A DNA stretch of 35,915 nucleotides from Myxococcales bacterium (GCA_009692535.1 SHYZ01000011.1:1-35915); one strand, 5' to 3'. Counted from the stretch's first letter, positions 8,834 to 23,536 are shown. Program-made: numbers and translations. The notes: a model not told the origin generated them from the letters alone.

Positions 8834-8863
8834 TTGCGAATCCGTTCGGCCCGTCTGTATGAT
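8834..8863 (+). promoter_or_regulatory. Candidate sigma70-type promoter of the giant gene (TTGCGA-N18-TATGAT)
   Basis: TTGCGA at 8834-8839, TATGAT at 8858-8863, 18-bp spacer; expected TSS around 8870, immediately before GTG 8873. Confidence 0.5.
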
Positions 8864-8872
8864 GTCCCCAGA

Positions 8873-11800
8873 GTGTTCCCCGCGGCGCGCGCGCGTCTCC
8901 GACTTTTCCTCAGCGTGACCGCGGCCTTCGCGGCACTGGGCGCGGCGATCCACCCGGCGCACGCGTTGGTCGAGGGCGCCACGCCCTCACCGCTCGACTC
9001 GTATCGCGTCTTCGGCGACGGCATCGCCATCGGCAACAGCCTGATGGAGAACCCGCCGCCGAACGCCTACGTCAACAGCGAGCTCCTCGCTGAGTCGACC
9101 GCCAACCTGAACGGTCTCCCCTCCGACGCCGGCCTGCAGGCGGTCTACCTCTGGTGGTCCGGCTCGCTCGCGTCGGGCGAGGGGATGGCCGACATCGATA
9201 CGGACGCGCTCCTCTCCCTGACCGACGGCTCGTCGATGAACGTCTCGGCCGACGACTGCCAGCTGATCACCACGTTCCCCGGCGCGTCGCCGATGTCCTT
9301 CTACTACTGCCGCGCTGACGTCACCGCGTTCGTCGACCTCCACCCCGGCCCGTTCTCCTGGAACGGCGCCTACACCGTCGGCGACGTCTACGCCGACCCC
9401 GGCCTCGTCACCGGTTTCGGCTGCGCGTTCACCGACCCGCGCTGTCAGGCCAAGTACGCCGCGTGGTCGATGGTCTTCGTCTTCGACTCGCCGACCGAGA
9501 CGCTGCAGCGCGACGTCATCCTCTATGACGGCTTCGTGCACATGGACGAGACCGGCGGTGCCGGCGGTTCGTCGGGCATCGTGAACTTCAACATCGGCGG
9601 TTTCCTCGTCGGCACCCCCGCAGAGGTCGAGTTGACCTACTTCGGCCTCGAAGGGGACCAGCAGCTCGGCGCCGGTCCCGGCGGGCACTGCGACACCTGC
9701 CCCGACTTCTTCGCGGTGAACGGCTCCAACCTCACCGACGGGTTCAACCCCTCGGGCAACAGCTACAACTCGTCCGACGCGCTCGGCCTCGACATCGACG
9801 AGTTCCGCATCGGCACCTCGGCCGGCGGGCTCGGCGTCCTCGACACCGGCGACACGATGGCGAGCATCTCGACCGGCACCGGCGACAACATCCGCGAGGG
9901 CGGCGGCGCCGACACCGGCGAGTCGGTGTTCCTCGGCTACGTCTTCTTGCGCGTGAACCGCCCGTCGCCGAACTTCCGTGGCGCGGCCACACAGAAGATC
10001 GCCGACCCGCCGAGCGCGGCCACCGGCGAGACCATCTTCTACAGCATCAACCTCGCCAACCAGGGCTCGCTCGCCGCGACCGGCGTGAGCTTTTCCGACA
10101 CGATCCCGGTCGGCGCGACCTATGTGGCCGGGTCGCTCCGCATCGACGGCGTGGGCTGCACCGACGCTGCCGACGCCGACTCCTGCCGCGTCACCGGTGG
10201 CGTGGTCACGATCAACCTCGGCAACATCCCGTCGGTCGGCGACAACGACCGGCAGATCACCTTCCGCGCGACGATGGCGGCGACCGGGATCGGCGAGGTC
10301 GTCTGCAACACCGCCGTGGTCTCATCCATCGAGACGCCCACGCCGAACTCGATCGGCCCCGCCTGCACCACCGTCGAGAGCGCGACGATCGGGCTGCCGA
10401 CCAAGTCGGCGGTCGACCTCACCGGTGGCGCGACCGGGCCGGGCGACATCATTCAGTACACGGTCTCGATCCCGGGCGATCCGTCGAGCCCCACCTCGGG
10501 CGTGTCGTTCACCGACGACGTGCCGGCGCACGTCACGCTGCTCGCCTACACCTCGCCGGGCGGCGGCGCGGTCGACGGGTCGGTCTTCGTCGGTGGCGCG
10601 TTTGGCAACGGCCGCGTCTCCTACTCGGCGATCACAATCCCGTCGGGCGGCACGGCGACGATCACGATCACCGTCCGCGTCGACGACGAGCCCGCCTGGG
10701 TCGCCGACGGCGTACCGGCAGCGAACATCCACGGCCAGACCGTCTGCAACCAGGGGCAGGTGAGCGCGGGCTTCCTGCCGATGCCGCTCCTCACCGACAA
10801 CACCAGCACGCCGGCGGCGCCCGACGCGAGCTGCCTCACGATCACCTACGCGCCGCTCTTTGGCGGCTCGTCAAAGACCGTGGTCGACGACGACGGCGGC
10901 GGGCTCGAGCCGGGCGACACGCTCACCTACACGATCCAGCTCGCGAACTCGGGCAACCGGCAGGGGACGATCACGCTCACCGACCCGATGCCCGCGGCGG
11001 TCGAGAACTTCACGCTGCTGACGCCGCTCCTCGGCGCGACGTTTACGCCGGCGCCGGCGGGGGTGAACGGCACCGGCGAGCTGTCGGTGACCGGGCTCGC
11101 CGTAGCGCCGGGCACGACGGCGACGATCCAGTTCCGCGTGCGCGTGCAGGCGCTGGCCGCCGACGGGACCGTCGTCGTCAACAGCGCGCAGATGACCGTG
11201 GCCGAGCGCGTGGCCGAGAACCGCATCCTCACCTCGGCTGCGCTCACCGTCTTCTCGCGCCCCGACCTCTCGGGTCTCTCCAAGTCGGTCACCGACCTCG
11301 ACGGCGGCACGGTCGAGCCCGGCGATACGCTGCGCTACGACCTCGGCGTCACCAACACCGGGAACCGACCTGCAACGATGATGGTGCTCACCGATCCGGT
11401 GAGCGTGAACCTCACCACGATCACCGTCGTGGGCGGCGTCTTCGATCCCGGCACGCGCACGATCACCTGGTCAGTGGCGTCGCTCGCGATCGGCGAGACG
11501 TTCAACGCGTCGTTCACCGCGGTGGTCGTGAGCCCGCTCGCGAACGGCACGGTGATCGACAACCAGGCGACGATCGACTCGGTCGAGGCGTCGCCCGCCG
11601 AGGTCTCCGACGATCCGGCCACGGTCGCCGGCAACGATCCCACGCGGGTCACGGTGGTCAGCGCGCCGAACCTTGCCGCGGCGCAAAAGTCGGTGGTGGA
11701 TCTCGACGGCGGCACGTTCGAGCCGGGCGACATCGTCGAGTACACGCTGACCGTGTCGAACGCCGGGTCGGCGATCGCGACCGACGTCGACATCACCGAT

Positions 11801-14800
11801 CCGGTCGATGCGAACCTCACCGCGGTGACACCGCAGGACGGCGGCGTGTTCGCGGGCGGCGTCGTCACTTGGTCGCTTGGCGCGGTCGGGCCCGGCGCGA
11901 GCCGAATCGTTCGTTTCCAAGCCACCGTGCGCACGCCACTCCTCGCCGGCACCGTCGTGTCGAACCAGGCGAGCGTGACCACGCCCGAGCTGGTCGGGGC
12001 GACGCCGACTGACGACCCGGCGACCGCGGCGATCGACGACGCGACCAGCTTCATCATCGACTCGGCGGCCATCCTCACCACCTCAATCATCGCGGTGGTC
12101 GACGTGAACGGCGGCGCGACGCAGCCGGGCGACCTGCTCCGCTACACCGTCACGATCACCAACACCGGCACTTCGCCCGCGACCGGACTCGCCGCACAGG
12201 TCGCGCTCGCCGTCGGGCTCGGCGCGGTCGTGCCCGAGGACGGCGGCGCCTTCGCCGGTGGCGTCGTCACCTGGAGCCCCGCCGGCACGCTCAACCCAGG
12301 CGGCGCGCCGGTGGAGGTCCACTTCACCGCGACCGTCGCAGCCGGCGTGGGCAACGGCACGACGATCTGCGAGACCGCCGTGGTCGACAGCGCGCAGTCG
12401 TTGCCGTTCACCACCGCCGCGGCGTGCATCACCGTGGTCTCTCGCCCCGACTTCGCGGCGAGTGAGAAGGTGGTGATCGATCTCGACGGCGGCGTGGTCG
12501 AGCCGGGCGACGTGCTCGAGTACCAGATCGCCGTCGTGAACGCGGGGACAGAGGCGGGCTCGCCGGTCGTCGTCACCGACGTGGTCGACCTCAACCTCGG
12601 CACCGTCACGCCGGCCAGTGGCGGCGTGTTCGACGCGGCGACGCGCACCATCACCTGGACGATTCCAACGGTTGCCGCCGGCACGTCACAGGTCGTGACC
12701 TTTCGCGCCACGGTGGCGCTGCCGCTCGACGACGGCACGGTGATCGCCAACCAAGCCGACATCATGTGCGCCAACGGCTGCCCGGCGCCCGAGCCGACCG
12801 ACGATCCGCTCACCGCCGCGCCCGACGACCCCACGCTCGTCGTCGTCGCGTCCGCGCCTGACTTCATCGTCGCCAAGACGTTCGTGGACGACGACGGTGG
12901 CGTACTCGATCCGGGCGACGCGGTGACGTACACGATCACTCTCACCAACGAGGGCGACAGCTGCGCCGACCTCGTGCGCATCACCGACGCGCTCGCCGCC
13001 GCGCTTGGACCGGCAGTGCCCGGCGCGGGCGGCACGTTCGACGCTGGCACCGGCACGGTCACCTGGGACTCAGCCGGCACGCCGGCGCTGCTCCGGCTCT
13101 GCCCGGGCACGACGGTGACGTTGCCGATCGCGGTGCCGATCGACTTCCCGCTCGCCGACGGTACCGCCATCTGCAACCGCGCGAGCGTGACCAGCGAAGA
13201 GGTCGTGACCCCGGTCGTCTCCGACGATCCTGCGACCCCCGCGCCCGACGACGCGACCTGCACCGTCGTGGTCTCCGGCGCGCTCTTTACCGGCGCGACC
13301 AAGATCGTGACCGACGCGGGCGGCGCACCGTTTTCGCCCGGCGACGTCGTGACCTACACCATCGCGTTCACGAACGCGGGTAACGCCGACGCGACCGGCG
13401 TGGTCGTGCGTGACCCGATCGATCCGGCGCTCGTCGTTGTGACGCCAGGGCAGGGCGGCACGCTGGTCGGCGGAGAGGTCGTCTGGGACTCGATCGGTAC
13501 GCCCGAACTCGCGACCGTCACCGTCGGCGAGACGATCACGCTGACCGTGACCGCCACCATCGGCAGCCCGCTCGACGACGGCACACCGATCCTGAACCAG
13601 GCCACGATCACGGCGGCGGTCGGCCTCACCACACCCGCGCTCACCGACGACCCGGCGACGGTCGCGCTCGACGACCCGACGATCATCCTCGTCACCGCGA
13701 GCGCCGTCGTCACCGCCACCAAGACCGCGCTCGACGAGAACGCCGGCGTCGCCGCACCGAACGACATCTTCCTCTACACGATCACGCTAGCGAACGCCGG
13801 CGACGCGATCGGCCGCAACGCGGTCGTCACCGATGCGCTCGCGCCCGCGCTCGCGTTTGTCGAGGCGCTCGACGGTGGTGTCTACGATGCGGCCAGCCGC
13901 ACGATCACCTGGAGCATTGCGGCAGTCGTCCCGGCCACGCCGTCGGTCGCCCGCTTCCGTGCCCGCGCGGCGGCCCCGATCGCGACCGGCACGGTGATCT
14001 CGAATCAGGCCAGCTTCATCATCGAGACGGTGCCGGTCCCCGGCCTCTCCGACGATCCGAGCACCCCGCTGCCCGGCGACCCGACGCTGGTGGTGATCGT
14101 CGCCGCGCCCGAGCTCAGCACGTCGGTAAAGACGGTGGTCGGCGCCGGACCGGGCGACATCGTGACCCCGGGCACGCTGCTCACCTGGGAGATCCGCGTC
14201 GTGAACAGCGGCGACGCGGCCGCGAACGCAGTGGTCGTGACCGACAACGTCGACCTCACGCGCCTCGAGGCGATCGTGCCGCTCGACGGCGGCGTGTTCG
14301 ACGTCGCGACCGGCGTGCTCACCTGGTCGATCGCGCAGGTGCTCCCCGGTATCGACGCGGTGGTGCGCTTCACCAGCCAGGTCCGCGCCGACGTGCCCGA
14401 CGCTGTCGTCGTGGCCAACCAAGCGCAGGTTTCCTCGGCCGAGACGCCGACCGGCGTGCTCACCGACGATCCGGGTGACCCCGAGCTCGACGATCCGACC
14501 GACCTCTTCACCGACGCCACGCCGGAACTCACGGTCGAGAAGACCGTCACCGACGACAACGGTCTCGCGTTCTCGCCCGGCGACCCGGTGACGTACTCGA
14601 TCCGCGTCACGGTGGCCGGCCCGGCGCACGCCTACTCCGTCGTGGTCACCGACCCGGTGAGCCCGCGTCTCGTCGACGTCGTGCCTGGGCAGGGCGGCGT
14701 CTTCGCCGGCGGCGTGATCCGCTGGGACACGGCGACCACGCCCGCGCTCGCGCACCTCGTCCCCGGCGTGGCGACCACGCTCACCTTCGCAGCGCGCATC

Positions 14801-17800
14801 GCCGACGACGCGACGAACGGCGAGCTGCTCGACAACCAAGCTGCAGTCGGCGCAGGCGGGCTGGTCGCGCCGGTGCCGTCCGACGATCCGGGCACGCCGA
14901 CCGCCGACGATCCGACGCGCCTCGTGGTCGTCGCCGGCCCGCTGCTCCGCGTCGAGAAGACAGTCGTCGACGAGAACGGCGGCGTGGTGGTGCCGGGCGA
15001 TCTCCTCGAGTGGACGCTCGTCGTCGAGAACGCCGGCAGCGAGACCTCTCCTGCCACGCTGCTCTTCGATCCCGCGCCGGCCCAGACCGAGTACGTCGCC
15101 GACTCGACCACCGCCGACGGCGTCCCGCTCGCCGACGGGCCGGGCGGAGTCTCGCCGCTCGCTGTCGCGCCTGGCGTCCTTGTCGACGGTGCCGGCGGCG
15201 CTGGCAGCGGCGATCTTCTGCCCGGCGCCCGCGTCACCTTCACCTTCAGGACGCGCGTCGCGGCGACCGCACTCGGCGGCACGCTCATCGCCAACCAGGG
15301 CTTCGCGTCAAACCGCCTCGGCGCGAGTGCTCCCTCCGATGACCCGGCCACGCCTGCGCCCAGCGATTCGACCATCGTCGTCGTCGGCGGGGGACCGATC
15401 CTCGCCGGCGCGATCAAGACCTACGACCCGGTGCCGGTGGGCGACGACGGCGACGGCCTGTTCCAGCCGGGCGAGATCGTCCACTACCGCGTGAGCATGA
15501 CCAACAGCGGCGCGTCCGACGCGCACGGCGTGACTCTTGTCGACGCGCTGCCCGCCGGTGGCGAGTGGGTCGCCGGTTCGCTTCGCCTCGACGGCGCATC
15601 GCTCACCGATCCCGCCGACGGCGATGCCGGCGAGGTGGTCGGCGGTCGACTCACGGTCCGCGTCGGCGACCTTGCGGCCGGCACGACCGCGCTCGTCGAG
15701 TTCCGCGTGCGCGTGGGCGTCGGCGCGCTCGAGCTCGTGAACCAGGGCGAGGTCACCTCCGACGAGACCGCGTTCGAGCTGACCGATGCCGACGGCAACG
15801 ACGGCAACGGCGACCAAGAGACCATCACGCCGGTCGGCGATCGTCCCGCGCTCACGCTCGCCAAGACCGTTGCCGACGCAAACGGTGGCGTCGTCGAAGC
15901 AGGTGACGAGCTGCTCTACACGCTCCAGCTCGGCAGCCAGGGCAGCCTCCCGCTCGCCGACCTCCGGCTCGAGGACCTGCTCCCCGTCGGCGTCAGCTAC
16001 GTCCCCGGCTCGACGGTCTGGCCGGGGCTCCCCGCCGATCCGTTCGTGCCGTCACCGACCGGCGGCTCGCTGGTGCTTGGCGGCCTCACGCTCGCGCCGG
16101 GCGAGACCCTCACGATCACCTTCCGCGCCATCGTCCAGCCAAACGACGCCGAGCCGGCCGAGCCGATCTGCAACGACGCCACCGCGACTGTCGCTGGCAT
16201 CGAGGTGGTCTCCGCGCCGGCCTGCGTCACCATCGGCGGCGTTCCCGGCGTCGGTCGCCTCGTGGGGCGCGTCTTTATCGACGGCGACGAGCGCGACCGC
16301 GTCTACGTCGAGGCGGACGATCAGCCGCTCGCCGACGTGCAGCTCCAGATTCTGCGCGCCGAGGCCCCCGGCGGCTCACCGCTGGTCGGCCTTGTCACCG
16401 ACGCCGAGGGGCGCTACCGCGTGGACGGCCTCCCGCCGGGTCGCTACGTCGTGCGCGCGCTCTCCTCGCGTGGCGCGCAGCTCGCCGAGGTGGGCGGCCT
16501 CGTGGTCGAGGGCGGCGTCGACCTCGATCGCGACGTGCTCGTCGATCCTTCCGGTCGCGTCTACGACTCCACCACCGGCCGCACGCTCGCCGACGTGCAG
16601 ACCTTCCTCTTCTACGACAGCGAGGACGAGACTGAGCCGGGCGTCCTCGTCCCCGCCGACCGCATGGGACCGGGCCAGCAAGGGCAGCGCACCACGCCCG
16701 AGGGCATCTACAAGTACGACGTGCTGCCGGGGCGACGCTATCGCCTCGAGCTCGACACCACGACGTCGACCTGGGTCTTTCCGTCGCAGCGCATCCCCGC
16801 GACGCCCGGGTTCGCGCCACCGGGCGACGTCGTTGCGAACGCAGCGCCGAGCGTCGCACCGGGCGCGAAGCAGACCTGGTACCTCCGCTTTTATCCGGTC
16901 GACCCCGGTGATGACGTGCGCCGCAACCACGTCCCGCTCGATCCACTCGCGACGCAGGTGCGGCTCGACAAGCGCGCTGACCGCCCCGAGGCGACGCTCG
17001 GCGACATCGTTGTCTACACGGTCGCCGTGAAGAACCGCTCGCCGCGCGATCTCGACGGCGTCTACCTGCTCGACGCGCCGGCGCGTGGTCTCTCGTACCT
17101 GCGCGGCCACGCCGCGGTCGAGATCGTGAGCGGCACCGAGGTGACGCGCCTGCAAGCGGGCAACGGCGGCTTCGGCGATCTCCTCACCGCGGGCGGCAGC
17201 GGCCGGCTGGTCCGCTTCGGTCCGTTCGATCTCCCGGCGGGCGGGCAGCTGACGCTCACCTATCAAGTCGTCGTCGGACTCGACACGCGCAAGGGCGTCT
17301 ACGAGAACCGCGCTGTACTCGCCGACGCGGCCGGCGTGGAGTTGTCGAACTCCGATCGCGTGCCGCTGCGCGTCGCTGATGATCCTGACTTCGACCTCGC
17401 GCTGCTCGTCGGGCGGGTCTTCTGCGACGACGACGGCGACGGTCGCCACGATTGGCCGGCCGAGGGCGGCGTCCCCGGCGCGCGCGTCTACATCGACACC
17501 GGGTCGTACGCGGTCGCCGACCAACACGGCCGCTGGCACCTCTCGCAGGTCGAGCCGGGGCTGCGTCTGCTCAAGCTCGACATCGCGACGCTGCCGCCGG
17601 GCTCGACGCTGGCCGGCGATGCGATGCGCCTGATGCACATGACGCGCGGCCTCCCCGACCGCGCGAGCTTCCCGGTGCGCTGCGGCAAGTCGTCGTCGGT
17701 CACCACGACCGACACCGACGTGGCGACGATCTCGCTCTCGGGCAAGACGGTAAAGGGCGCTGCGACGTCGACGTCGCCCAAGCTGCCCAAGACCTCGGTG

Positions 17801-20800
17801 ACCGTCACGGGGGATCTCGCCGCGATGACGGTCGCGATCGACGGCGCGCCGCTCGCGCTGCCAGCCGCCACGCTCGCGCTCGCGGTCGACGCCGCGCTGC
17901 TGCTGCCGCCGGCGGCTGACGCGGCCGCCGACGCGGCTGTCGACGCTCGTGGCGCTCCGAACCTCGCCGCACCGCTGTCGGGTGGCTTTGCCCCCGCGCC
18001 GATTCTGCAAGGCGCGTGGAGCGCTACGAGCGACGCGGCGCGCTGGGTGCTCGAGGTGTCGCGTGTTGCGGCGTCGGGCGACCGTGTCGTGGTGCGGACA
18101 GCGTCGGGTGATGGCGCGCCCGGTGCGTTCGCTTGGGACGGCAAGGGGGACGATGGCCAGGTGGTCGCGTCCGACGCGATCTACACCGCACAGCTTCGTG
18201 TCGTGGCGACCGACGGCGCCGAAGCGTCGAGCGCGCGCGTGACCTTCGGCGTCGCGTTCGGCGTGCCGAAGGCGCCCGAGCGCGTCGAGACGCTACGCGG
18301 GACGTTCTTCGGCGTGAAGCGCCGTGTGCCGATCGTGAAGCCCGCGCTCAGGCGCCAGCTGATCGCGCTGGCGCGCACGGTCCCGAAGGGCGCTGTTCTC
18401 GAGGTGGAGGTACATGGCGACGGGCGCGGCGACGTGCTCAGGTCGGTGGCGGCCACCCAGGCGCAGGCCGATGCGGCCCGCGCGGTGCTCACGGGGCTCG
18501 ACTCCGGCGCGGCGCGCATCGTCGCGCGCGGTCGCGGAGGGCTCGAGGCGATCGCCGGCACGCGCACCCGCACCGACCGTGCGAAGAACCAGCGCGTCGT
18601 AATCCGAATCGTGCCCCCGCCGCCCAAAGTGGCGGGGGGAACCGTGCCGGCGCCCGCGAAGGTGACGCCCGATGCATTGGTCGAAGGCGAGCCGGCCACC
18701 GTCGACGAGGCTGGCCACTTCGTGCGCAACGTGCCGATTCCCGCCGACGGCACGATCACTCTCGACCTCCTCGGCGCCGACACGCGGCGCGTGATGGTCG
18801 TGATCCGCGTGGGCGATGGCACGAGCGGCGTGGCCGCGGCGCCGACCCGCAAGGTCACAGTGGCTGGCGACGTTGCGACCGGTCGTCTCACGGTGGATGG
18901 TCAGCCGGTCGACGGCGCGCTGCTCGGCGTGTCGCTCGCATTCGCCGGCGCGACGCCGGGCGCTTCCTCGACGACTGCGGAGCCGCGCTTCGACATCGTG
19001 ACGCCGCCCAGTCCTCGTCGGGCGCGTGGCCGTCGGCGTGGCCCGCCGCCTGCGCCAGCGAAGGCACACCTCGATCGTTCGGTGGCGTTCGACCTCGTCG
19101 TGCCCGAGGGCGTGAGCGGCGGTCGATGGGAGCTCGTGATCCGCCCCGAGCTCCGCGATGGAGCGCGCGCGGCACCGGTCTACCGACAGGACGGCGATGG
19201 TCGCCCACCGCCGCTGCTCTCGTGGGACGGCCTCACGCCGGGCGGCGAGCTCGCGGTCCGAACCAGCGCGCGCTACCTCGTCGAGTTTGTCGTGGAAGAT
19301 GCACGCGGCGGTCGCGCCGACGCCGCGCCGCGCAGCTTCACCATCGGGGCCGCGCCCGGTGCGCTGGCGGCGATTGAGGCGAAGGGCACGCTCTTCGACA
19401 AGAAGGGCGCGCCGACCGCGGCGCTCAAGAAGGCGCTGGTCCGGCTCACCGCCGCAGCGCGCAAGCGCTCGCCGTCGGACCTCTTCCGTATCGCACTCGC
19501 GGTCGCTCTGCGTGGCAAGGACGCGGCGCAGCCGGAGTTCACCGTCGCGGCGCGTGCGTCCACGCTCAAGATCGCGCTGGCCAAGCTCGGCGCGCCGGTC
19601 GCACGAATCGACGTCGTCGTCGCGCCGGCAGTCCCGGCGCCTGCGGTCGCACGCCGGCGGCCGCGCGCGGGCAAGGTCGTCGACTCGGTGCGGATCACCG
19701 CGCACTCGCCGACCAGCGCCGCAGCCGCGCGAGTCGTGGTCGCAGGACGCACGGTCGGCATCAGCGGGACCGAGTTCACCACCACCGCAGACCTGCCGGT
19801 GCCGGGCGCGCTGGTCATCGAGCTGACTTCGGCCGATGGACGGCGCGCGACCTTCACGCTGCCGGTCGCAGCCGCGGCGGGCGACACCGTGCCTGACTCG
19901 CCTTCGGTCGCGCCTGCTGGCGCCACGATAGACTCGTCGCGCCCCGGCAGCAGCGACGACGCGCTCGCCCCCGGCGCCGCCGGCGCACCTGGCGCGCCCG
20001 TCGCGGGCGCACCGGGTGGCCGCGATGATGTGCTCGCCCCGGCGGATAACGCCGACGCTGCTGCGGCGACCACCGCGCGCCTCGCCCCCGGCCCGGCGCT
20101 CACGCTCGAGTTGGCACACGATGCGTCGGAGTTTGGCGGCGCCGAGCTCGATGCCGCGCTGTCGGATCCCGTCGCTGCGGGCAGCAAGGACGCAGCCAAG
20201 CCCGCCCCGGAGTCGCGCGTCATGGTCGACGCCACGTCCGGCGCGCGAATCAATGTCCCCAATGCGGTGCGCGCGGCCGACCTCGTCGTCTCGCTGCCAC
20301 CACGCGGGCTACGGCTTCGCTCGCCGGAACTCTGGCTCGCTGCGCGCACGCACAAGACCAACCGCCTGCGCGTGAACGGTCGCGAGGTGCCGGTCGATGC
20401 CGATGGCCGCTACGCCGCGCTCATCACGTTGCCGCTCGGCGCGTCCACGCTCGTCGTCGAGGCGACCGACGTCGACGACAACGTGGCGCGGATCAGCTGG
20501 CCGGTCGCGGTCTCCGAGACAGAGCACTTCCTGCTCGTGCTCGCCGACGGCGCGATTGCATCGGCCAAAACCGGCGACGGCTGGAGCGCCGACGGCGCCG
20601 CGCTCGACGGCTGGGGGCAGCACGACAGCGTGGTCGCCGGCTCGGCAGTGCTCCACGGCCGCGTGGCCGCCTACTACAAGGGACGCTTTAGCGCCGGCAA
20701 GACCCTCGGTCCGGTCAAGGTCACGGGGCACCTCGACACTGCGAAGCAGTCCGCCTTCGAGGAGTTCTCGGACACGTCGATCGATCCCGAGGAGGAGCAG

Positions 20801-23536
20801 GCGGTCTACGGCGACGACGCGACCGAGGTCCGAGACGCCCGCGCGCGCGGCAAGCTCTACCTCGCAGCCGAGGCCAAGGGGCTGCGCGCGCTGATCGGGA
20901 ATTTCCAGACCCGGCTCGCGTCGGGCGGCGAGCTCTTCCGCTACGACCGCACCGTCTACGGCACCGAGGTCGACTTCACCCGCAGCTTCGCCAAGGTGAA
21001 GCACGAGTCGCGCGTGTTCGTGAGCACCGGCGACGCGCGCCTCGGCCGCGACGTGAACCTCTTCCGCGCCACCGGCGGCACGCTCTACTACCTGCGCCAC
21101 AGCCAGCTCGTCGAGGGCGGCGAGCGGGTGCGGGTGATCGTCCGCGACCGCGACAACGGCCTGCTGCTCTCCGAGCGCTCGCTCGCGCGCGACTCCGACT
21201 ACGTGATCGACTACGCCGGCGGGCGCGTGATGTTCCGCGAGCCGATCTCGTCGAGCGCCGACGGCGCGCTCGTGCTCGGCGGCCTCTCGTCGTCCCAGAC
21301 GCCGCTCGACGGCCACCCGGTCTACGTCGAGGTCAGCTACGAGCACGAGCTCGACGATGCGACCGGCGGCGCAGCGGGCGGTGCCTACGTGCGCAACACG
21401 CTGTTCGACACGCTCGCGATCGGCGCCGGCCTCGTCGGTGAGGCACGGGACGGCGATGGCGCGCTCGGCGACTACTCGCTCGCCGGCGTCGATCTCGCGT
21501 GGAAGGCGAAGGCGCGCACGACGCTCACCGCCGAGGTCGCGCGCTCATCGTCGTCCGACGCGGGGAACTTCCTCTCGCAGGACGGCGGGCTCTCCTTCCA
21601 GGGACTCGATGCGGTCGCGTTTGCGGCGCCCGACGCGAGCGCGACGGGCAAGGTGGCGTGGAAGCTCCGCGCCGAGACGCAGCTCGGCGACTTCTGGAAG
21701 CGTCGCTGGGCAGAGGAGACGCGGCTCTCGCTCTACGCGCAGAACCTCGAGCACGGCTTCCACGCGGGCGGCGCGATCCTCGAGCAGGGGCGCCGCAAGA
21801 TCGGTGGCCAGGCGGTTCACCGTCTCAGCCAAGCCGACTCGCTGACCCTGCGCTACGACTCCGAGCTCGCCGAGCTGCCGCGCATCGGACCGACGCCAGA
21901 GGTCGTGGCCGCCAACCCCGATCCGCTGCGGCTCGACGAGCGCGCCAGCAACACCACGACGCTGCAGTGGGCGCATGACGGCCGTCGGCTCGACTGGAAG
22001 CTCGAGGCCGCCTACCAGCGGCTATCGACCACCGCGTCGCTCGACGATGGCATGACGCCGCAGATCGACACCGAGCGGTTCGGCTTCGGCGGGCTCGCCA
22101 CCTACGGGCTCTCGAGGCGCGTCTCGCTGCGCGCCGGGCAGGAGGTGCAGGTGCAGGTGGGCGGCGCGCGCGACCCGCTGCTCGATCCGCTCACGCACTC
22201 GGGCGCCGGCCGCGACTACTCCAACGACCTCGCCGGCATCACGACGACGCTCGGCGCCGACTGGGAGCTCGCCGAGAAGCTCACGCTGTCGGGCACCGGC
22301 GCGCTCCGCTGGAACGGCGACACCGCGGCGCAGCTCGGCCTCAAGACGCCGTTCGGCGCGAAGGGTTCGATCTACGCGCAGGAGCGCTTCGACGACCGCG
22401 GCGGGCGCCTCTTCTCGACCAGCGTGCTGGGCGCGGAGCAGGGCCTCGGCGGCGGCAGAGGCAAGGCGTACGGCGAGTACCAACTCGAGCGCGGCGCACT
22501 CGGCACGCGCAACCGCGCCGTGCTCGGCCTCGGCCACAAGATCCGGCTGAAGAAAGGCTTCTCGCTCGCGCTCGGCTACGAGCACCAGCAGACGTTCGGC
22601 GGTTACCTGCCCGACGGCACGCCGACCGGCGAGAACCTACGCGACGTGCTGCACGCGGCGGCCGAGTACCTGCGTGGCGACCGGCTGCGCGTGACCAGCG
22701 CCGTCGAAGTGCGCTTCGACGACGGCATGCACGGCCAGCCCGGCTCGGTCGACCCGCGCTACGAAGGCCTCGTGCGCGAGGACCCGCGCGGCATCGCGAC
22801 CGGAGCCTTCCCCGATCACGGTGGCACCGCGCCCGGCGCACCGCTCGTGCTTCCGCCCGGCGAGAAGCTGCAGGTCGTTTCCGCCACCGCAGCCGACTGG
22901 AAGTGGTCCGACGATCTCACCTTCCTCGGTCGCTTCCGCGTCTCGCACACCGAGGACCTCACCAACCACGGGCGCATGCTGCCCGACGGCGTGGTCTCCT
23001 CGTTCATCGCGGCGCGCTTCGTCGAGGCGAGCGCCGGCTGGGCGTACCGGCCGCTGCGGCTCGACTGGTTCGACCTCTTCTTCCGTTACGCGTGGCAGCT
23101 CGATCAGCGCCCGGTCGGCCTGGCCGGCCAGTCGAGCGTCACCGACGCGCACGTCGCCTCGCTCGCGCCGATCGTCGAGCTGCCGATGCGGCTCAAGCTG
23201 TCGGGCAAGGTCGCGTGGAAGCGCACCGCGAGCGAGGTCGAGCTCATGGATGCGCAGTCGCTCGACGCCGTCGTACACACTTGGCTCTGGCTGCTGCGCG
23301 CCGGCTACACGCTGCGCGGCCGGTGGGAGCTCGGCGCCGAGTATCGGTTCCTCTATCTCGACCGCCCCGGCTCTGCCGAGCTTCGGCACGGCGCGCTGGC
23401 CGAGGCGACCTATCGCCTCAATGATCGCGTCTGGCTTGGAGCGGGGTATAACTTCAGCCGCTTCTCCGATGACGAACTCGCGGACCTCGAGCGTGACAGC
23501 CATGGCTTCTTCTTGCGGGTGGTGGGGCGGTACTGA
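8873..23536 (+). CDS. Giant secreted surface protein: signal peptide, N-terminal beta-rich domain, ~16 DUF11-like repeats, SdrD/SpaA-B-like domains, OmpA-like segments, C-terminal outer-membrane beta-barrel-like region
   Basis: Single uninterrupted frame. Sec signal [27 protein letters not shown]. Repeats of type K-x-V-x-D-x-x-G-G-x-x-x-PGD-x-x-x-Y-x-(I/V)...TNxG...VTD...NQA. C-terminal amphipathic strand pattern ending [12 protein letters not shown]. The track start (8834, TTG) falls inside the candidate promoter, so GTG 8873 is preferred. Confidence 0.93.
9985..16245 (+). repeat. Array of 15 contiguous DUF11-like protein repeats of about 125-157 aa; a 16th at ~16961-17390 follows an SdrD-B-like domain
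   Basis: Approximate repeat starts (nt): 9985, 10390, 10861, 11269, 11671, 12074, 12450, 12862, 13285, 13708, 14113, 14529, 14944, 15401, 15851, each marked by the strand-A 'K-x-V-x-D' and 'PGD' motif. Confidence 0.88.
16252..16600 (+). other. SdrD-B/SpaA-like (CnaB-fold) domain in the giant protein; a second related segment at ~17400-17690
   Basis: [37 protein letters not shown]...[22 protein letters not shown] and [58 protein letters not shown] match the 'G.VF.D.dgdG....e.Gv.gv.V.l.......t...G.y.f..l.pG.y' pattern. Confidence 0.7.
18289..18630 (+). other. OmpA-like domain within the giant protein (degenerate peptidoglycan-binding motif)
   Basis: [45 protein letters not shown]...[18 protein letters not shown] follows the OmpA_C pattern, ending in the NRRVEI-like NQRVVI. 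Confidence 0.6.
20650..23536 (+). other. C-terminal outer-membrane beta-barrel-like region
   Basis: About 960 aa of alternating amphipathic strands with short turns ([31 protein letters not shown]..., ...[33 protein letters not shown]), ending in an aromatic C-terminal residue as in OMP beta-signals. Confidence 0.6.

What the first reader, a model, noticed from the sequence alone, without database searches (positions are those of the whole stretch)
9985..17390. Lys...Asp...Asn triad conserved in 15 of 16 repeats and lost as a set in repeat 6: isopeptide-bond signature
Every repeat except one carries a Lys in the first strand (e.g. QKSVVD, SKTVVD, EKTVTD), an Asp in the central 'V(T)D' strand (ITDPV, VTDNV, LTDPM) and an Asn in the last strand (SNQAS, CNRAS, DNQAT). 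In repeat 6 the aligned positions are Ile (12089-12091), Val (12200-12202) and Glu (12371-12373), so all three are lost together. Lys + Asn/Asp + catalytic acid is the chemistry of intramolecular isopeptide bonds in CnaA/D2-type Gram-positive pilin and adhesin domains. Coordinated loss suggests the residues interact. If real, this would be a long stalk of about 15 covalently locked domains on a Gram-negative-type barrel-anchored protein.
Basis: partly seen in the sequence, partly recalled or inferred. Interest (0 to 1): 0.75.

Follow-up and report, generated by a model that had tools for sequence, protein, structure and literature searches.

The report
Isopeptide-locked repeat stalk, known domain

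Summary
The 4900-aa ORF at 8834-23536(+) has 16 DUF11 repeats; 15 carry Lys-Asp-Asn, and repeat 6 has Ile1086, Val1123 and Glu1180 at the stated codons. In 441 DUF11 repeats, mostly from the same phylum, the three residues come and go together (phi 0.87 for Asp-Asn, 0.60-0.63 with Lys; best control pair 0.39). On a repeat tree Asp and Asn are lost on the same branch 13 times against 0.5 expected. Lost sites mostly become hydrophobic, as expected for a buried triad. The repeats match the CLIPPER crystal structure 9IFR with the triad in register. Orthologues show that repeat 6 lost its triad once: the nearest relative has the same Ile/Val/Glu, two more distant ones have the triad intact. Repeats 5 and 6 are both predicted to keep the fold. 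The chemistry is not new: Costa et al. (Protein Sci., Nov 2025, PMC12617251) solved a DUF11 domain from a Gram-negative, OmpA-anchored adhesin with this bond. Modestly new here: a stalk of about 15 locked domains on a phylum-wide C-terminal barrel family, with conserved unlocked repeats. Bond formation itself is untested.

The parts
8834..23536 (+). 4900-aa ORF (TTG start): signal peptide-like N-terminus, head, 15 DUF11 repeats, SdrD_B/CarboxypepD_reg-like module, 16th DUF11 repeat, OmpA-like module, Ig-like module, C-terminal outer-membrane barrel-type region
8960..9970 (+). N-terminal head domain, conserved in orthologues (66%, 51%, 44% identity); no Pfam or PDB match
9971..10390 (+). DUF11 repeat 1: K388 (9995), D422 (10097), N492 (10307); Cys pair
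10391..10855 (+). DUF11 repeat 2: K524 (10403), D561 (10514), N639 (10748); Cys pair
10856..11260 (+). DUF11 repeat 3: K681 (10874), D717 (10982), N783 (11180)
11261..11665 (+). DUF11 repeat 4: K817 (11282), D854 (11393), N910 (11561)
11666..12067 (+). DUF11 repeat 5: K952 (11687), D989 (11798), N1044 (11963); AlphaFold2 model pLDDT 96.6
12068..12445 (+). DUF11 repeat 6, triad lost: I1086 (12089), V1123 (12200), E1180 (12371); Cys pair C1179 (12368) and C1198 (12425) kept; fold retained in model (pLDDT 96.6, Foldseek TM 0.67/0.68 to 9IFR)
12446..12856 (+). DUF11 repeat 7: K1212 (12467), D1249 (12578), N1306 (12749)
12857..13279 (+). DUF11 repeat 8: K1348 (12875), D1385 (12986), N1448 (13175); Cys pair
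13280..13702 (+). DUF11 repeat 9: K1490 (13301), D1527 (13412), N1588 (13595)
13703..14107 (+). DUF11 repeat 10: K1630 (13721), D1667 (13832), N1724 (14003)
14108..14521 (+). DUF11 repeat 11: K1766 (14129), D1804 (14243), N1862 (14417)
14522..14938 (+). DUF11 repeat 12: K1903 (14540), D1940 (14651), N2001 (14834)
14939..15394 (+). DUF11 repeat 13: K2042 (14957), D2079 (15068), N2154 (15293)
15395..15844 (+). DUF11 repeat 14: K2195 (15416), D2237 (15542), N2303 (15740)
15845..16249 (+). DUF11 repeat 15 (weakest match, 21 bits, below the Pfam cut-off): K2344 (15863), D2381 (15974), N2447 (16172); Cys pair
16952..17377 (+). DUF11 repeat 16: K2713 (16970), D2747 (17072), N2825 (17306); K-to-GD and G-to-D spacings identical to 9IFR
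18338..18616 (+). OmpA-like (peptidoglycan-binding-type) module, weak here, above the Pfam cut-off in three relatives
20834..23533 (+). C-terminal barrel-type region ending in a beta-signal ([10 protein letters not shown]); aligned with 14 homologues across the phylum

Best explanation
The protein is a giant surface stalk built from 16 CnaA-like DUF11/CLIPPER domains. In 15 of them a Lys on the first strand lies in the core next to an Asn on a late strand, with an Asp on a middle strand to catalyse; after folding the Lys amine attacks the Asn side chain, releases ammonia (-17 Da) and leaves a covalent Lys-Asn isopeptide bond. The bond clips the roughly 92-115 residues between the two strands, so each domain resists unfolding and proteolysis under pull. 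Repeat 6 lost all three residues once, in the ancestor shared with its nearest relative, and folds unlocked, with a Cys pair that may form a disulfide. Shown: the residues, their linked gain and loss, homology to a solved bonded domain, predicted fold. Inferred: that the bond forms here, that the stalk is extracellular, and its mechanical role.
For: 15 of 16 repeats keep K/D/N, as do orthologous repeats in related genomes. Of D+N+ repeats with enough N-terminal sequence, 297 of 303 have a Lys in the first-strand stretch; of D-N- ones 72 of 107 do not, even with a deliberately wide Lys window. D-N phi 0.87, K-D 0.63, K-N 0.60, best control 0.39; values hold after clustering at 50% identity. Tree test: D and N lost on the same branch 13 times, expected about 0.5; all three 9 times. 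Lost positions become hydrophobic (84% at Asp, 63% at Asn; mostly Leu/Trp/Val at Lys), fitting a buried triad. Model pLDDT 96.6; Foldseek hits to FimA, SpaA, EbpB, BcpA, CNA and CLIPPER 9IFR. A repeat profile hits 9IFR at E 5.5e-6 with its Lys, Asp and Asn at the triad (Lys after a 3-residue loop difference), EbpB with all three in register and BcpA with Asp and Asn. NCBIfam isopeptide D2 model TIGR04226 scores 132.7 against a cut-off of 30. Published: 9IFR bond and K715A phenotype (PMC12617251).
Against: No direct evidence of the bond: side-chain distances could not be measured because model coordinates are not exposed. The published survey notes that some DUF11 domains lack the bond, and known pilin triads may stay unbonded in isolated protein (e.g. 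the FimP N-domain, PMC3485203). Foldseek also matches unrelated Ig-like proteins at similar E-values, so the fold match alone is not specific.
Confidence: 0.87

Rival explanations
1. The three residues form a conserved buried salt-bridge and hydrogen-bond network that stabilises the fold without a covalent bond.
For: The covariation and hydrophobic replacement would also fit a non-covalent polar core cluster; the bond was not observed here.
Against: The homologous domain 9IFR has the Lys-Asn bond in the crystal, and the K715A variant loses thermostability and protease resistance (PMC12617251). EbpB, BcpA and FimA/FimP-type pilins share the triad. A conserved Asn, rather than another acid, at the partner position is what the ammonia-loss chemistry needs.
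Confidence: 0.1
2. The triad only reflects shared ancestry of two DUF11 subfamilies (triad-plus and triad-minus), with no functional coupling among the three residues.
For: Many repeats are related, and the R6 loss in this genome and in G001 is one event.
Against: Joint losses recur on separate branches (13 for D and N, 9 for all three), the association holds at 50% identity clustering, and equally conserved control columns do not reach it.
Confidence: 0.03

Closest known systems
CLIPPER (DUF11, PF01345) domain of Acinetobacter silvestris B9T28_05395, PDB 9IFR (Costa et al. 2025, PMC12617251)
   Same: Same Pfam family, CnaA-like fold, Lys/Asp/Asn at the same places; repeat 16 has identical K-to-GD and G-to-D spacing; Gram-negative adhesin with tandem repeats and an OmpA-like domain; disulfides also occur in some of these domains
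   Different: Here 15 triad repeats in one 4900-aa protein, a different head, a C-terminal barrel-type region after the OmpA-like domain, and one repeat whose triad was lost as a set
CnaA/D2-type isopeptide domains of Gram-positive pilins (FimP/FimA, BcpA, SpaA, EbpB; NCBIfam TIGR04226)
   Same: Lys on the first strand, Asp in the middle, Asn late; detectable sequence and fold similarity
   Different: Those are sortase-assembled pilin subunits; this is a single polypeptide with a Gram-negative-type barrel anchor
Grappling hook protein GhpA of Aureispira (PDB 9FLP)
   Same: A very long surface protein with several DUF11-like domains; best PDB profile hit (E 7e-12)
   Different: Its DUF11-like stretches were not shown here to carry the full triad; different overall architecture

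Membership tests
CLIPPER (DUF11, PF01345) isopeptide domain | Match to the PF01345 profile above the curated cut-off | tested here: met
   15 of 16 repeats over the cut-off; R15 at 21 bits against 24.6
CLIPPER (DUF11, PF01345) isopeptide domain | Lys, Asp, Asn at the positions of 9IFR Lys715/Asp748/Asn806 | tested here: met
   Profile alignment to 9IFR chain residues 8-103: Lys at chain 10, Asp at 44, Asn at 101; chain 44 would be residue 749 by the offset that fits Lys715 and Asn806, one off the published 748. Met in 15 of 16 repeats; not met in R6
CLIPPER (DUF11, PF01345) isopeptide domain | CnaA-like beta-sandwich fold | tested here: met
   Predicted only: AlphaFold2 pLDDT 96.6 for R5 and R6; Foldseek to 9IFR TM 0.57/0.62 (R5) and 0.67/0.68 (R6)
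CLIPPER (DUF11, PF01345) isopeptide domain | Covalent Lys-Asn bond actually formed | not testable with these tools
   Needs mass spectrometry or a crystal structure
Fibrillar adhesin | Signal peptide, adhesive head, stalk of repeats, surface anchor | tested here: inconclusive
   Signal-like N-terminus, conserved head of unknown function, repeat stalk, OmpA-like domain and barrel-type region are present; adhesion and surface exposure untested

The most novel reading that the evidence does not exclude
Giant barrel-anchored DUF11 stalks in this phylum are mechanical mosaics: locked and unlocked repeats sit at conserved array positions, so that unlocked repeats (R6 here; repeats 1, 2, 5, 10, 11, 13 and 18 in the 18-repeat relatives) act as selected extension or fuse elements between covalently locked ones.
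Probability: 0.2. Interest if true: 0.6.

Novelty: new member of a known kind. Interest (0 to 1): 0.35.

Why it matters
It shows that the recently described CLIPPER isopeptide chemistry very probably extends to very long barrel-anchored stalks in a further Gram-negative-type lineage. It also gives an explicit, tree-controlled test that the Lys, Asp and Asn of DUF11 evolve as one unit, so sequence alone can tell locked from unlocked repeats. The conserved pattern of locked and unlocked repeats makes the mechanical role of such stalks testable.

Tried and rejected
The search for related loci failed with two repeat alignments and gave one locus with the array, so relatives came from the genome search. 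A two-repeat alignment for structure prediction was discarded because MAFFT shifted one pair by a whole repeat. Loci from the fetch from genomes were not sent to structure prediction, since its rule names other sources. The first automatic Lys call undercounted Lys because of loop-length differences and was corrected with a distance window. Single-repeat phmmer against PDB found nothing useful. The barrel and head found no PDB relative. The idea that a Cys pair generally replaces the triad was rejected: 35 triad repeats have a Cys pair, and R6 of this family is the only triad-minus repeat seen with one.

Full report
What is there. The window holds one 4900-aa ORF, 8834-23536 on the + strand. 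Its genome has exactly 16 DUF11 matches, all in this ORF. Fifteen are in tandem (aa 380-2472), then comes a SdrD_B/CarboxypepD_reg-like module, a 16th repeat (aa 2707-2848), an OmpA-like module (weak here, over the Pfam cut-off in three relatives), an Ig-like module and a C-terminal region ending in what looks like a classical outer-membrane beta-signal ([10 protein letters not shown]). That last region aligns with 14 homologues across the phylum and has no Pfam family above its cut-off and no PDB match.

Observation. All repeats but R6 carry the Lys, Asp and Asn (codons). R6 has Ile1086, Val1123 and Glu1180 at exactly the stated coordinates. Asp and Asn are among the four columns at 15/16 identity, in an alignment whose mean column identity is 36%. 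Lys reaches 15/16 once R1 and R16, whose A-B loop is shorter, are read correctly.

Orthologues. Two relatives carry full-length proteins with 16 repeats matching position by position (G001, same family; G003, same order), and two more carry partial ones (G043, G059). R6 of G001 has the same Ile, Val and Glu; R6 of G003 and G043 has the intact triad. So the loss is most simply a single event in the common ancestor of this genome and G001. Taken alone, R6 cannot show coupling.

Coupling. From 113 genomes of the phylum I fetched DUF11 regions and aligned 441 repeats. Asp-Asn association has phi 0.87, Lys-Asp 0.63, Lys-Asn 0.60; the strongest control pair of conserved columns has 0.39. After clustering at 50% identity the values are 0.84, 0.64 and 0.66. 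Most apparent exceptions lacking Lys are alignment slips; with a distance window, 297 of 303 D+N+ repeats have the Lys. On a FastTree tree built without the triad columns, parsimony puts 13 losses of D and N on the same branch where about 0.5 is expected, and 9 losses of all three. The tree of short repeats is poorly resolved, so these counts are approximate. Where the triad is gone, Asp becomes Leu/Val/Ala/Phe and Asn becomes Ala/Val/Ser/Leu, as expected for core positions.

Structure. R5 models at pLDDT 96.6 as a beta-sandwich, with Lys8 in strand 7-12, Asp45 in strand 38-46 and Asn100 in strand 97-100. Foldseek finds FimA, SpaA, EbpB, BcpA, the CNA collagen-binding domain and the CLIPPER structure 9IFR, along with unrelated Ig-like folds. 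R6 also models at 96.6 and matches 9IFR with TM 0.67/0.68, so losing the triad did not cost the predicted fold. By sequence profile, 9IFR is hit at E 5.5e-6; its Asp and Asn fall on the triad columns and its Lys does so after a 3-residue loop difference that R1 and R16 share. My count puts the Asp at residue 749, one off the published 748.

Known or new. New here: a 15-fold triad array on a phylum-wide C-terminal barrel family, explicit evidence that the triad evolves as a unit, and conserved unlocked positions.

Mechanism. In each locked repeat the bond would short-circuit 92-115 residues, leaving only about 23-35 residues per repeat, plus the short lead into the next one, to extend under load. 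R6 would be the one repeat able to unfold fully, limited at most by a possible C1179-C1198 disulfide. This is inference. Sixteen extended Ig-type domains would be longer than a periplasm is wide (general knowledge), which favours an extracellular stalk, but an OmpA-like domain between stalk and barrel is odd for that topology and remains unexplained.

Noticed in passing
L077, L079, L081, L082, L086, L095-L098, L112, L114: Eleven related proteins with 18 DUF11 repeats share a fixed mosaic: repeats 3, 6, 7, 8, 12 and 14-17 keep the Asp-Asn pair (Lys too, with one uncertain exception), repeats 1, 2, 5, 10, 11, 13 and 18 lack the full triad, repeats 4 and 9 vary among genomes.
   Followed up: partly
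L078 (G191:C23), repeats 10, 12, 18, 19 and 21: In five repeats the catalytic Asp is replaced by Glu while Asn is kept (Lys found in three), a possible Lys-Glu-Asn DUF11 variant resembling the CnaB-type acid.
   Followed up: no
window 20834-23533 and homologues (alignment A6): Conserved C-terminal barrel-type family ending in ...[15 protein letters not shown]...GFFFRVxGxY, with no Pfam family above cut-off and no PDB relative.
   Followed up: partly
window 18338-18616; L035, L036, L084: An OmpA-family domain lies between the DUF11 stalk and the C-terminal barrel, which is hard to reconcile with a simple autotransporter topology.
   Followed up: partly
repeats 4, 5 and 7-13 (alignment A1): A conserved 'S/TDDPxTxxxxDPT' motif follows the Asn strand in most tandem repeats; it is missing from R6 here and in G001 but present in R6 of G003 and G043. 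Its role is unknown.
   Followed up: no
window 8960-9970: The head domain has weak similarity to a DUF3344-like domain in a Deltaproteobacteria MAG protein (L045) that also carries one DUF11 repeat.
   Followed up: partly
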